Shown here: in pieces, positions 1,092 to 30,729 of the stretch
Layout: each line of letters starts with the position of its first letter
How positions within the stretch are numbered: position 1 is the first letter of the stretch
Assembly: GCA_016180755.1 (NCBI GenBank)
Contig: JACPAO010000122.1
Location: 1-35,404 of the forward strand
Length of the DNA: 35,404 nucleotides
DNA from: Methanobacteriota archaeon
Lineage (GTDB): Archaea; Thermoplasmatota; E2; JACPAO01
Direction: 5' to 3'
The notes under the pieces: model-generated
Databases searched by the model: none
What the model was told of the DNA's origin: nothing
Seen by the model: only the letters and a program-made list of their open reading frames with translations
Translations under genes and position numbers: made by a program

Positions 1092-2401
1092 CGGGTCCTC
1101 ACCTGCCGTAGGAGCCGCACGCTGATGTCCTCCTTCTTCGGGTCCCAGTCGATGACGGTGACGCCCATGCGCCGAAGGAGATGGTAGCGCGAACGGTTCT
1201 CCGCCTTGAGGACGAGCATGCTCCAGTTCGCGAAGTCGTCGCTTCCCGCGACGCTCGAGTAGACGAGCGGGTTGATGACGATGATCGGCCGGATCCGCCG
1301 CGACATGGCCGTGTACTTGCGAAGGACGCGCAGGCCTTCGATGGTCTGCTCGAAGTTCACCTCCGGCCTCGTGATCACGATGCTCACCGGGCGCATGGGG
1401 ATGAGTTGGTTCTTCGTCCCCTCGACCGCCTCCGAGAAGGCCCCGGGCCGCGGCGCGCCCGCCTCGAGGGCCGCGAGCTCCTGTGCCACGCGGAAGTACT
1501 GCCGTTCGCCGAGGTCAGGGTAGAGTTGGACGTCCTTGCGGGCGTTGAAGAACGTGCCGCCGATCTTGAAGCCCTTGTCGATGAAGAACTTCGCGACGCC
1601 CGTCGTCGCCTTCACGACGTACTCGAAGGTGTTCTCGATGCTGCTTCCGGCCTGCATGTAGTTCGCGGCGTCGAGGAAGAACCAGACGGCCTTCTTGCCC
1701 TCGGGCTCGAACTTGTTGACCATCGGCTTGAGGGTGCCGCGCGTCGACATGCGGGCCGTCGCCTTCCAGTTGATGTTCTTGATGGGGTCGCCGCGCTGGT
1801 ACTCGCGGATCTCCTCGAAGTCCGTCGATTGGCTTCCCACGCGGGCGAGATCCGCGTCGACGCGCTGGGACTGGGCGAACCCCCGGACCTCCTTCATGCG
1901 CCGCAGGGCCGTGGGCTTGTGGCGGACGATGAGTGTGTCCGGTTCGCTGAACGTCTCCGGCACGGCGCGCTTGAGGCGAAGGGGGTTGATGCGGGTGACC
2001 TGGGTCGCGCGCATGTCGTAGCTTCCGCGCTTCGTGCACTTGATGCGGTAGGTGAACGCGGTCTCGCTGCGGCGCCCGAGCGCCTTCCAGAGGAGGTGCA
2101 CGTTGCTCCCCTGCGTGAGCTCGAAGATCTCGGGGAGCGCGTCGTACGTCTCGACGAAGCCGATGCCGCGGCCCACCTTGACCCGGACCGTGACGTCGAC
2201 CTCTTCGCCGACGCGGGGCGTCGTGCGGCTGTAGGTTCGCTCCACCGCGATGTCCTTCGTGTCGCCGACGTTCAGCCCAAGGAGGAAGAAGCCGAGGAAG
2301 AAGACGGCGAGGACGGCGAAGTTGAGGTTCCCGAAGACGAAGCCTAGGATGAACAGGAGCGTGAAGGCCTTGAAGTAGACGTGGGCGCTTCGGCTGATCA
2401 T
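1088..2401 (-). CDS. DUF58 domain protein
   Basis: From MISRSAHVYFKAFTLLF: two N-terminal hydrophobic segments, then 'REYQRGDPIKNINWKATARMSTRGTLKPMVNKFE', typical of DUF58. The ORF-track start (2815) runs antisense inside moxR; the real ATG at 2401 overlaps the moxR stop. Confidence 0.9.
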   Translation of the reverse strand: MISRSAHVYFKAFTLLFILGFVFGNLNFAVLAVFFLGFFLLGLNVGDTKDIAVERTYSRTTPRVGEEVDVTVRVKVGRGIGFVETYDALPEIFELTQGSNVHLLWKALGRRSETAFTYRIKCTKRGSYDMRATQVTRINPLRLKRAVPETFSEPDTLIVRHKPTALRRMKEVRGFAQSQRVDADLARVGSQSTDFEEIREYQRGDPIKNINWKATARMSTRGTLKPMVNKFEPEGKKAVWFFLDAANYMQAGSSIENTFEYVVKATTGVAKFFIDKGFKIGGTFFNARKDVQLYPDLGERQYFRVAQELAALEAGAPRPGAFSEAVEGTKNQLIPMRPVSIVITRPEVNFEQTIEGLRVLRKYTAMSRRIRPIIVINPLVYSSVAGSDDFANWSMLVLKAENRSRYHLLRRMGVTVIDWDPKKEDISVRLLRQVRTR

Positions 2402-16812: not shown

Positions 16813-17028
16813 CTACGGGGAGGGGCCGGGCTCGTTCATCTTCGCCCAGCGCAGCAGGAACGTGCCGAGGCCGAGCATGAGAAGCGTGACCGTCACGGCG
16901 TACACGCCGAGGTCGTTGTAGCTTGAGGCGCCGCCGAAGAGGAGGCCGCCCACGCTAAGGGCGTAGAAGAGTACGGCCACGCCGACGAGGGCCGTCGCCG
17001 TGTAGAGGAGTCCCGGGAAACGGGGCAT
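16813..17028 (-). CDS. Small membrane protein (71 aa)
   Basis: Two hydrophobic segments, ATG at 17028, upstream of hisS on the same strand. Confidence 0.6.
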   Translation of the reverse strand: MPRFPGLLYTATALVGVAVLFYALSVGGLLFGGASSYNDLGVYAVTVTLLMLGLGTFLLRWAKMNEPGPSP

Positions 17029-18631: not shown

Positions 18632-19355
18632 CTAGGATGAGCGACCGAACATGGTCGCCATCGAAAACGCGATGGCCAGCAACGAAGTCCAAAGACCAAC
18701 CGACGACGTCTCTGCTGGTTCCGCCTTTTCGTCGCGGTTCTCCGGGAAACCGGCCTCGAGCCCGAAAACGAAATCTCCGCTGCGTCCCTCGTCAGGGGCG
18801 CGGTCCTCGTAGACACGACTCGGTCCGACCTCGTCCCGGCTCGTGAACACCGCTCCGCGCACACCATCCCCTGGGCCCCACGTCCCGTCAGGTTGCAAGA
18901 GGTTCCGTCCGACTTCCGCATCATAATTCGATGGGAACCCCTGAAAGGTTACGGGGCCACCTTCAGTCGCGATGCCGTCAACGACAACCTGAAACAGGTC
19001 GGCGTCTGATGAATAAAGCTCCACGCGTGCTTCCGACCGATTCGTCGAATCGAACATCGTGAAACTGAGGAGGCTCGTTTGGTTCTGGCTTTCCCCCGGT
19101 GGGCCGGTGGCCGCGCGAACCTGGATTCGAAGCCGGTCCTGACGCTCCTGAAGACGGACCATGATAATGTCGATGTAGGGTGCCGCGGCGGGTCTGGAGC
19201 CATTGTCGCTGACCTCCATCACGTCGTCTCGGGCGTCGACGATGAAGTCAACCCAACGTGGATACATCGTGTCCAGCGTCGATTCCGGTGGCGTCGTGCA
19301 TAGGGAGATCAGGGTTGCGAACAGGCCAACCAGGGCGACGGATGTCCGTGACAAG
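18632..19355 (-). CDS. Secreted/anchored hypothetical protein
   Basis: TTG at 19355 gives (M)SRTSVALVGLFATLISLCTTPPES..., a signal/lipobox-like N-terminus; C-terminal hydrophobic segment. Confidence 0.5.
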
Positions 19356-19465
19356 CGGGTGACCGACCTTTGCGCGAGCTTGGTCCACCCGACATCTGGG
19401 TGCCTTAACAAGCTTCCTTCGGGCCTGGCCTCCGGTAGTCGAACGGTGGGCTGACCCGGGTGAAC

Positions 19466-19557
19466 CCACGACTCTCGTGGCCTCACCAGAGAGACGATGT
19501 CTCTCGGTGAAGGTCAGCGCTCCAGTCACTCGTCATCGAGCGGACTCTCGGCTGACC
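19466..19557. ncRNA. Candidate structured RNA or regulatory element: three consecutive stem-loops in a long intergenic region, strand unknown
   Basis: H1 ccacga-ctc-tcgtgg (19466-19480); H2 tcacc(a)gagagac-gat-gtctctcggtga, 12 bp with one bulge (19483-19510); H3 ggtcagc/agtc/ctcg-tcat-cgag/gact/gctgacc (19512-19557). Confidence 0.35.
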
Positions 19558-19887
19558 CTCTTGTCATCATCCCTTAACTGGAGCCCGCAGTGCTACCTGG
19601 TTGCACCATGCCCCCTTGAGAAGGTGGGCCCAGCTTGGGTGCGAAGTTCGCCCCGGTTAAACCCTTTTCTGCGGGCGGCCGTCGATCCGCATGGTGCGTT
19701 ACTTTTGCGCGGCCGACGGGCGCCGCGCCAAACGCCGCCCGGCGGGCGTCTCCTGGTTTACTGCGGTGAAGCGCCGCATCGGACTTGCGGCCCGCCGTTT
19801 ACCACGGCGCGGCCCGCGAGCAAACGCGACGACGCGAAACAAAAAAACTATAGTCGCGACCGGCCCCTGCCGCCGCCTTACCGCGGG

Positions 19888-24120: not shown

Positions 24121-24228
24121 CTACTTGTTGCGCATCTTCTGGGCCCGCTTTCGGCGGCGCATCTTCTTCTTGTGCCACTTCCAGCGCTGTTGGCCGCGCT
24201 TCTTCCAGGCCCGTGAACCGCGTTTCAA
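24121..24228 (-). CDS. rpl41e: Probable ribosomal protein eL41 (35 aa; absent from ORF track)
   Basis: Reverse strand TTG-start frame: (M)KRGSRAWKKRGQQRWKWHKKKMRRRKRAQKMRNK*, matching the W-K-W...KKMRRxKR...KMR character of archaeal L41e. Confidence 0.6.
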   Translation of the reverse strand: MKRGSRAWKKRGQQRWKWHKKKMRRRKRAQKMRNK

Positions 24229-26421: not shown

Positions 26422-27702
26422 ATGAGAAGCCCAGAAGGAGAAACCCGTCACCAGAACCACAAGAACGACGCCCGGGACCGCCGCCGCCAAGCGACCCGCG
26501 ACGCCCGCCTCCACGAAGCGGGCACCGCGGGCCTACCCTACGGACTCCTACCTGGCCGCGCCGGCCGACCCCCCACCGGACAGGTGTGGCAACGACATAG
26601 CCAGGAACGCGAATTCCGCGACGCCAAGGACGAGGCGGCCGTCGTCTCGGCCATCGCAGGCCTCTCCCCGGAATGCCGTCCGGATGTCGAGGCCTTCCTG
26701 CGCCTCCGGCGGCGCCGATCGCAGGTCGGCCAGATCCGACGCTACGCCGAGACCCTTGCCGACCTCCACCGCTTCACCCACGCGACCCCTTGGGACGACG
26801 TGACCCCGGACCAGTGCGGCGCCTGGACGGAGCGGCTCCTCGGCCGCGTCAGCCCGGAAACTGCCGGATCCTACGCCCTGCTCGTGCAAGGCTTCCTCCG
26901 GCACCGGCTTGCCCTCCGCGACCGACTCCTGCCCCACGCCTTCCGCGTCGCCTTCGACACCGGCGAAAACGAGGACGAGAAGAAGGCACGCCGGGTCCCC
27001 GACAACCACTTCCTCGCGATGGTCGCCAGGAACAAGAACCGGCCCTGTTTCCAAGCCCTGTTCTGGGTGCTCTTCGACACCGGGTTCCGCATCAACGAGG
27101 CCCTAAGCCTCAACGTCGGCCACGTCCGGTTCGAGGAAGGCGGCGTCACCCTCAGCATCCCACCCCGCAGCCAGGCCCGCTTCCGACTCAAGAACAAACG
27201 AGCCTCCCGCGAGGTGTGGGTCCTCCAGTGCCGCGCCGCCCTCGAGGCCTGGCTCGAAGAGCACCCCTTCCGGGATACGCCAGACGCGCCCCTGTTCCTG
27301 ACGCGCGACAACCAGCACGCGACGTCGGCGTGGCTCCCCATGGGACGCGACGCCGGCCTGCGACGCCTCAAAGCGTCGTGCACCGAGGCCGGCGTCCCCG
27401 CGTACACGTGCCACGACTTCCGCCATAACAAGGCGTTCACGATGAAGATGTTCGGAAACGTCACGGACTCCGACATGTGCGCCTTCTTCGGGTGGGCCGA
27501 CGGGAGCAGCAAGCCGCGGTATTACGGCCGCATCGTCGCCGCCGACCTCCGCGCAAAAACCCGCGCCCAAGCCGGCATCAACAACGTCGGCCAGCACATC
27601 GTCATCAAAGAGGGCGAAGCCGAGGCGAAGCTGCGGATCCTCCAGGACGCGCTCCGCCTGATCACGGACCCCGGCGCGCGGCCCAACCCCCCACCGTCCT
27701 AG
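26422..27702 (+). CDS. Tyrosine recombinase / phage-type integrase
   Basis: 'LFDTGFRINEALSL' (Arg I), 'YTCHDFRHNKAFTM' (HxxR), 'GWADGSSKPRYYGR' (W/H and Tyr); N-terminal SAM-like region. SD-like ggaggt at 26408. Confidence 0.88.
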   Translation: MRSPEGETRHQNHKNDARDRRRQATRDARLHEAGTAGLPYGLLPGRAGRPPTGQVWQRHSQEREFRDAKDEAAVVSAIAGLSPECRPDVEAFLRLRRRRSQVGQIRRYAETLADLHRFTHATPWDDVTPDQCGAWTERLLGRVSPETAGSYALLVQGFLRHRLALRDRLLPHAFRVAFDTGENEDEKKARRVPDNHFLAMVARNKNRPCFQALFWVLFDTGFRINEALSLNVGHVRFEEGGVTLSIPPRSQARFRLKNKRASREVWVLQCRAALEAWLEEHPFRDTPDAPLFLTRDNQHATSAWLPMGRDAGLRRLKASCTEAGVPAYTCHDFRHNKAFTMKMFGNVTDSDMCAFFGWADGSSKPRYYGRIVAADLRAKTRAQAGINNVGQHIVIKEGEAEAKLRILQDALRLITDPGARPNPPPS

Positions 27703-30026: not shown

Positions 30027-30729
30027 CGGCGGCAGCGTCCGCCGCGTCCTGACCGTTGGTTGCCAGATGCTGGGCACGGCCCAACGTGGCGAGTGTTGCG
30101 AACAAGAAGGCGGCGCCCAATACGAGTTCGGCGGTCGTCTCCAGGAGGATTTGCGGCGTCACCAGTTGCGTCGGGAAGGCCGCCAGAGCAATGCTCTCAA
30201 GGCCCGTCGCGCTCCAGCGCAGAGCCTGTGCGAAGGCAGTCATTGGGACCAGCCAAGCCTGGGCGCGGAACCATCGCCGTTCCGCTAGGAAGCCGAGGGC
30301 GAATGCGGCGTTGGATAGTTCGGTCGTGACGCGGAAGAACCCGCGCCACGGCACAAGCGGATGAGCAAGATGGTACGCGGTCGGCAGGACGCCGAGAACG
30401 ACCACGACGGCCAAGCAGAACCCGGTGCGACGCCAAGCGCGGCTCGGGTCCTGGCGGGCAAAACCCCACGCGGCCGCGAGCCACAGGCACGCGAGGGCGG
30501 CTTCCAGGGCGATGTCGAACCAGCGCCACCACGCTTCGACGCCCAAACCATCCTGGGGAATCGAAAAAAGGACCCGAGGCGAGGATTCGAACCCGCGTTC
30601 CCACAGGACCCGCGACCCCACGTGGAGGATCAGGCCGACCGCGATAGCAACCGCAGCCGCGGCTTCGCTCGAGGGCGTGCGACGTCCCGATGGGCCGGTG
30701 TCCGTTGGGGTCTTGTTGTCCATCTCCAA
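30013..30729 (-). CDS. Multi-pass membrane protein
   Basis: 238 aa with several hydrophobic segments; converges with and slightly overlaps the preceding lipoprotein gene. Confidence 0.65.
   Translation of the reverse strand: MEMDNKTPTDTGPSGRRTPSSEAAAAVAIAVGLILHVGSRVLWERGFESSPRVLFSIPQDGLGVEAWWRWFDIALEAALACLWLAAAWGFARQDPSRAWRRTGFCLAVVVVLGVLPTAYHLAHPLVPWRGFFRVTTELSNAAFALGFLAERRWFRAQAWLVPMTAFAQALRWSATGLESIALAAFPTQLVTPQILLETTAELVLGAAFLFATLATLGRAQHLATNGQDAADAAAVTSG

What the first reader, a model, noticed from the sequence alone, without database searches (positions are those of the whole stretch)
19356..19887. Roughly 530-bp intergenic region with three back-to-back hairpins and a possible pseudoknot: candidate unannotated structured RNA
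Between the likely start of the (-) gene (TTG 19355) and the (+) wHTH gene (ATG 19888) lie H1 (6 bp, loop ctc), H2 (12 bp with one bulge, loop gat) and H3 (7+4+4 bp, loop tcat), separated by 1-2 nt. A further 7-bp pairing gctccag (19519-19525) with ctggagc (19578-19584) crosses H3 and could form a pseudoknot or switch. On the reverse strand, 'ggccaggcccgaaggaagc' near 19420-19438 vaguely recalls the SRP h8 apex, but it lies too near the end of the structure for a clean SRP RNA assignment. A reverse-strand TATA-like 'gggtttaacc' sits near 19660.
Basis: partly seen in the sequence, partly recalled or inferred. Interest (0 to 1): 0.6.

Follow-up and report, generated by a model that had tools for sequence, protein, structure and literature searches.

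The report
tRNA-Trp gene missing its second half
The hairpins mark the front half of an archaeal tryptophan tRNA gene, on the other strand, with an intron that doubles as a methylation-guide RNA; the back half that every relative examined has is missing here, so the tRNA is split, replaced elsewhere, or lost in assembly.

Summary
On the minus strand, 19615-19578 is the complete 5' exon of tRNA-Trp(CCA), followed from 19577 by an intron that is a box C/D methylation-guide sRNA (Rfam sR3, 36.8 bits, just under its cut-off of 41). The "pseudoknot" pair gctccag/ctggagc is the D guide facing its target, the anticodon loop, placing C34 at the guide position. The D' guide is a 10-nt perfect complement of 23S rRNA helix 69 (E. 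coli C1920), not only of tRNA position 39 as in known tRNA-Trp introns. Relatives share this intron. The odd feature is that the 3' exon is absent. All 49 relatives with enough contig have it; here similarity stops at the 3' splice site and hairpins H2/H1 follow. No matching 3' half was found in the window or the assembled genome (75% complete). Conserved neighbours (L41e-like gene upstream, small membrane protein downstream) show this is the original Trp locus, not a stray copy. Most likely the locus still makes the guide RNA while the tRNA is completed in trans or supplied by another copy in the unassembled quarter. A split tRNA-Trp is open but unproven; misassembly is not excluded.

The parts
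19656..19661 (-). TATA-like TTTAAC, candidate promoter element about 43 nt upstream of the tRNA 5' end
   Evidence: Position; consensus only, not tested. Within the 30-49 nt range reported for tRNA promoters of one other archaeon (PMC3218864).
19578..19615 (-). 5' exon of tRNA-Trp(CCA), nucleotides 1-37; anticodon CCA at 19581-19579
   Evidence: Alignment with relatives; coordinates.
19501..19577 (-). Intron at position 37/38 = box C/D guide sRNA (3' end inferred from the relatives' splice site)
   Evidence: Rfam sR3 36.8 bits, E 1.1e-7; alignment.
19564..19570 (-). Box C, ATGATGA
19552..19563 (-). D' guide CAAGAGGGTCAG; AAGAGGGTCA is a 10-nt complement of 23S rRNA TGACCCTCTT (helix 69, target C1920 in E. 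coli numbering)
19548..19551 (-). Box D', CCGA (variant also found in relatives)
19530..19536 (-). Box C', ATGACGA
19518..19529 (-). D guide GTGACTGGAGCG; CTGGAGC pairs with GCTCCAG 19584-19578, C34 at position 5
   Evidence: Sequence; same guide in relatives.
19514..19517 (-). Box D, CTGA
19499..19506 (-). Remnant of the 3' splice site, CGAG-AGA-C, where similarity to relatives ends and the 3' exon should begin
   Evidence: Alignment.
19484..19509 (-). Hairpin H2 (7 bp + 4 bp with one bulge), spanning the end of the intron, where relatives have the 3' exon
   Evidence: z = -4.3.
19466..19480 (-). Hairpin H1 (6 bp), in the trailer
   Evidence: not significant alone.
24121..24228 (-). Small basic L41e-like gene; its relative lies directly upstream of tRNA-Trp in most genomes of the class examined
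   Evidence: named from its sequence by the author, not by a database hit.
16813..17028 (-). Small membrane protein gene whose relatives follow tRNA-Trp in G001 and G002
   Evidence: tblastn E 9e-11.

Best explanation
This is the original tRNA-Trp locus of an archaeon (its named relatives are Thermoplasmata / Thermoplasmatota), read on the minus strand. Its 5' exon and box C/D intron are intact, but the 3' exon is no longer in cis. The locus most likely still yields a two-guide box C/D RNA: the D guide directs 2'-O-methylation of C34 of tRNA-Trp, and the D' guide directs it at helix 69 of 23S rRNA (C1920), perhaps with residual pairing to tRNA position 39. The ribosomal target gives a reason for the intron to be kept even after the tRNA broke in cis. 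The working tRNA-Trp must be completed in trans or come from another gene in the unassembled quarter of the genome. Shown: gene identity, box elements, complementarities, absence of the 3' exon in cis, synteny. Inferred: transcription, methylation, how the tRNA is completed.
For: Homology to complete tRNA-Trp genes with the same intron. Rfam sR3 hit on the minus strand. Canonical boxes with 12-nt guide spaces. D guide puts C34 at the fifth nucleotide from box D. D' guide is a 10-nt complement of 23S helix 69, and the same D' guide occurs in free-standing C/D sRNAs on two other MAG contigs (L079, L082). 3' exon in 49 of 49 usable relatives, not here; none in the window in any orientation; none in the assembled genome by T-loop plus acceptor at up to 1 mismatch or anticodon-stem strand plus T-loop. 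Synteny with an L41e-like gene and a small membrane protein. The D-arm has become fully paired (13-22 T.T to C-G, 10-25 G.T to G-C relative to most relatives), as in a tRNA under constraint.
Against: sR3 scores below its gathering cut-off here, and the relatives' loci scanned also gave no sR3 hit at the cut-off. The 23S target string was found in only 5 of 59 genomes with strict patterns; in the others it is absent, variant or unassembled, and G000 itself has no rRNA gene assembled. The D' guide's core also fits tRNA position 39, so the rRNA role is inferred. The D-arm changes may predate loss of the 3' exon. No expression data.
Confidence: 0.72

Rival explanations
1. Split tRNA-Trp: this locus makes a 5' half carrying the guide RNA, and a separate 3' half elsewhere is joined to it by trans-splicing. 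(A special case of the best explanation, listed apart because it is the novel one.)
For: The orthologous locus keeps a whole 5' exon, a well-paired D-arm, the inner intron helix (AAGG/CCTT) and a near-complete splice-site remnant CGAG-AGA-C, and loses only the 3' exon, at the usual split position 37/38. No second tRNA-Trp 5' exon was found in the genome.
Against: No 3' half in the assembled 75%. The trailer is self-complementary (H2, H1), and a search with it found no partner in the genome. The split tRNAs named in the papers read are in Nanoarchaeum and Crenarchaeota.
Confidence: 0.27
2. Relic: the tRNA was broken by rearrangement, a complete tRNA-Trp gene elsewhere took over, and the exon and intron are kept only for the guide RNA or are not yet decayed.
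For: About 4.5 kb and 2.5 kb of other genes now separate the tRNA from its conserved neighbours on both sides, so the locus was rearranged. The 23S guide would explain selective retention; free-standing C/D RNAs with this D' guide exist. A quarter of the genome is unassembled.
Against: The 5' exon, needed by no guide RNA beyond its anticodon target, is undamaged and its D-arm better paired than in relatives. No second tRNA-Trp seen.
Confidence: 0.42
3. Assembly fault: the 3' exon exists in the organism but was lost or mis-joined in this metagenome assembly.
For: The genome is a fragmented draft (163 contigs, 75% complete). Contigs of several relatives end inside this tRNA, so the locus is a difficult point for assemblers.
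Against: Both syntenic neighbours are on the contig in the right order and strand. A mis-join through shared tRNA sequence should still leave a 3' exon. The break coincides with the intron-exon border.
Confidence: 0.22
4. A new kind of structured RNA unrelated to tRNA.
For: H2 folds better than shuffles.
Against: Homology of 19511-19615 to tRNA-Trp genes in about 50 genomes.
Confidence: 0.02

Closest known systems
Archaeal tRNA-Trp(CCA) with intron-encoded box C/D guide (Haloferax volcanii; Pyrococcus sR50; Rfam sR3 RF01133)
   Same: Same tRNA, same intron position 37/38, boxes C/D'/C'/D, D guide to C34.
   Different: No 3' exon in cis. D' guide is a 10-nt complement of 23S helix 69, whereas the published second target is U39 of the same tRNA (PMC7994747, PMC4090602).
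Split (trans-spliced) archaeal tRNA genes, e.g. Nanoarchaeum equitans tRNA-His, Aeropyrum tRNA-Asp
   Same: A 5' tRNA half ending at position 37 with its own candidate promoter and a structured trailer.
   Different: No 3' half found; trailer self-complementary rather than complementary to a partner leader; carries a complete box C/D RNA.
Free-standing archaeal box C/D sRNAs guiding rRNA methylation
   Same: Box arrangement, 12-nt guide spaces, an rRNA target in helix 69, a region dense in predicted sites in hyperthermophiles (PMC4644070).
   Different: Embedded in a tRNA-Trp intron with a tRNA as the other target.

Membership tests
Box C/D guide sRNA in tRNA-Trp intron | Boxes C, D', C', D with about 12-nt guide spaces | tested here: met
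   box D' is CCGA, also seen in relatives.
Box C/D guide sRNA in tRNA-Trp intron | D guide complementary to the anticodon region with C34 at N+5 | tested here: met
   CTGGAGC 19525-19519 with GCTCCAG 19584-19578.
Box C/D guide sRNA in tRNA-Trp intron | D' guide to tRNA position 39 | tested here: inconclusive
   Only the core GGGTC fits the relatives' exon GACCC; the longer match is to 23S rRNA.
Rfam sR3 (RF01133) | Score at or above gathering cut-off | tested here: not met
   36.8 against 41 bits; the relatives scanned also miss it.
Functional tRNA-Trp gene in cis | 3' exon with T-arm and acceptor strand pairing GGGGGCA | tested here: not met
Split tRNA | Matching 3' half elsewhere in the genome | tested here: not met
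   None in the assembled 75%; the unassembled part cannot be searched.
Split tRNA | Trailer complementary to the partner's leader, forming a bulge-helix-bulge | tested here: inconclusive
   Trailer has no partner in the assembled genome; half of a bulge-helix-bulge remains in cis.
Any of these | Transcription, splicing and methylation | not testable with these tools
   Needs RNA data.

The most novel reading that the evidence does not exclude
A split tRNA-Trp outside the groups where split tRNAs are published, whose 5' half carries a complete box C/D RNA with two targets, the tRNA wobble base and helix 69 of the large rRNA, so that one transcript links tRNA assembly with ribosome modification.
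Probability: 0.22. Interest if true: 0.75.

Novelty: new variant of a known kind. Interest (0 to 1): 0.5.

Why it matters
tRNA-Trp is essential and normally has one gene, so an original locus with an intact 5' exon and intron but no 3' exon means a split tRNA, a replacement elsewhere, or an assembly fault. Separately, the D' guide shared by most relatives suggests that a tRNA intron modifies ribosomal RNA as well as its own tRNA, which would help explain why such introns persist although the intron is reported not to be essential in Haloferax (Joardar et al. 2008, title cited in PMC4090602).

Tried and rejected
SRP RNA, RNase P RNA, riboswitch: no Rfam support. Very long intron: ARAGORN with introns up to 400 nt and a custom 3'-half scan of the whole window, both strands and any order, find nothing. 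Permuted tRNA: same scan, negative. T-arm-like strings at 19122 and 30582 do not make a matching 3' half. Orphan 3' fragments elsewhere in the genome (C147:1807, C91:8746) do not pair with acceptor GGGGGCA. Candidates L130 and L131 lack a tRNA context. D-guide strings in rRNA: one 8-nt hit, which lies in DNA flanking the 16S gene. The one genome-contig scan, aimed at closer relatives, returned only the two order members already known and two contigs with free-standing sRNAs. My first E. coli numbering of the rRNA target (1936) was wrong; it is 1920. The first neighbourhood comparison, with reading frames of 80 aa or more, missed the downstream gene; short frames found it.

Full report
What was claimed. 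The stems are where stated. Folding of the minus strand of 19440-19680 is clearly better than shuffles (z = -4.3), the plus strand less so (z = -2.5). H2 alone stands out and H1 alone does not. Hairpins of this size are no more common in the window than in shuffles (18 against 16.6), so they needed outside evidence.

What it is. No Rfam family reaches its cut-off in the region, but below the cut-off the archaeal box C/D RNA sR3 matches the minus strand of 19574-19512 with 36.8 bits, E 1.1e-7. A search of 59 genomes (own and relatives) with the whole region found a conserved core in 52, at about window 19511-19615. ARAGORN with introns allowed reads that core in relatives as an intron-bearing tRNA, mostly called tRNA-Trp(CCA), with an intron of 66-104 nt (a few are labelled tRNA-Arg(cct), which I take to be a one-base shift of the intron boundary). 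Alignment shows that window 19615-19578 (minus) is the full 5' exon GGGGGCA-TG-GTGC-AACCAGGTA-GCAC-T-GCGGG-CTCCAG, and that the intron follows from 19577.

The guide RNA. In the intron I find box C ATGATGA 19570-19564, D' CCGA 19551-19548, C' ATGACGA 19536-19530 and D CTGA 19517-19514, with 12-nt guide spaces. H3 is the D' guide paired with the intron's end in the predicted fold.

The second target. The known second target is U39 of the same tRNA. Here the D' guide AAGAGGGTCAG matches the expected tRNA only in its core, but its first ten bases are a perfect complement of TGACCCTCTT in 23S rRNA, and most relatives' guide AAGAGGGTCAT gives eleven. By the N+5 rule the target is E. coli C1920 in helix 69 (numbered on rrlB). 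Only 41 of 20,000 shuffled guides had a perfect 10-nt match in 16S plus 23S. The 23S string was confirmed in five relatives; the others gave no match to two strict patterns, and this genome has no rRNA gene assembled, so conservation of guide and target together is shown only in part. Two further MAG contigs carry a free-standing C/D RNA with the same D' guide and a different D guide (L079, L082), as expected if the rRNA target matters in its own right.

The anomaly. In relatives the 3' exon ACCCGC...GGTTCRAATCCC...TGCCCCCA follows at once. It is present in 49 of 49 relatives whose contig reaches far enough; three further matches lie at contig ends. In the window, similarity runs through the inner intron helix (AAGG/CCTT) and the splice-site remnant CGAG-AGA-C (19506-19499) and then stops; H2 spans this border and H1 follows. 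A scan of the whole window, both strands and any order, for a T-arm followed by an acceptor strand that pairs with GGGGGCA finds none, while it finds the 3' half in four control loci. Whole-genome pattern searches and a BLAST search with a relative's gene find no 3' half and no second 5' exon. The assembly is 75% complete, and other expected tRNAs are also missing from the list (for example Asn and Tyr), in keeping with that figure.

Is it the original locus? In most relatives a small basic L41e-like gene lies directly upstream, and in G001 and G002 a small membrane protein lies directly downstream. In the window both are present on the same strand in the same order, at 24228-24121 and 17028-16813, with about 4.5 kb and 2.5 kb of other genes between them and the tRNA. 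tRNA-Arg(TCT) and tRNA-Ala(CGC), neighbours of Trp in G001, are also nearby. So this is the orthologous Trp locus, expanded on both sides, not a stray duplicate.

How it most likely works. The 5' exon is undamaged, and its D-arm has become fully paired compared with most relatives. The most economical reading is that transcription still produces the exon plus the guide RNA, which modifies C34 of tRNA-Trp and helix 69 of 23S. The working tRNA-Trp then comes from a separate 3' half (split tRNA) or from another gene, in either case in the unassembled quarter. I cannot choose between these with the data at hand. A mis-join through shared tRNA sequence should still leave a 3' exon, so a simple assembly chimera is less likely, but loss of about 40 bases in assembly is not excluded.

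Novelty. The intron and its C34 guide are known. The apparent rRNA target of D' is a new variant as far as the papers held here go; the founding 2001 paper was not available to read. A tRNA-Trp locus with guide intron but without 3' exon is, if real, new.

Noticed in passing
L079 5854-5874 (-), L082 3054-3074 (+): Free-standing box C/D sRNA with the same D' guide to 23S helix 69 and another D guide, on two MAG contigs; one MAG is labelled a bacterium and the contig may be misbinned.
   Followed up: partly
L051 2042-1863 (-), genome G001: tRNA-Trp intron of 104 nt with an extra outer helix and a D' guide (AAGAGGGTCTG) that fits both tRNA position 39 (7 nt) and 23S helix 69 (9 nt): a possible intermediate between the two targets.
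   Followed up: partly
L063 about 1470-1530 (+), genome G000 contig C147: Orphan 3' half of a tRNA with a long variable arm, beside a reading frame that looks by eye like the start of an integrase; probably an attachment site of an integrated element.
   Followed up: partly
L071 (G000 contig C91:8746-8842): Weak tRNA-like match (16.3 bits) with a good T-arm and acceptor strand CAATCCC but no matching 5' strand.
   Followed up: no
window 26422-27702 (+) and 30582-30594 (-): Phage-integrase family gene beside tRNA-Ala(CGC), and a T-arm-like string GGGTTCGAATCCT about 3 kb further on, perhaps the remains of an integrated element.
   Followed up: partly
Genomes G009, G031, G037, G045: Contigs end within or a few bases from the tRNA-Trp gene in several related genomes, G045 twice, suggesting an assembly fork at this conserved gene.
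   Followed up: no
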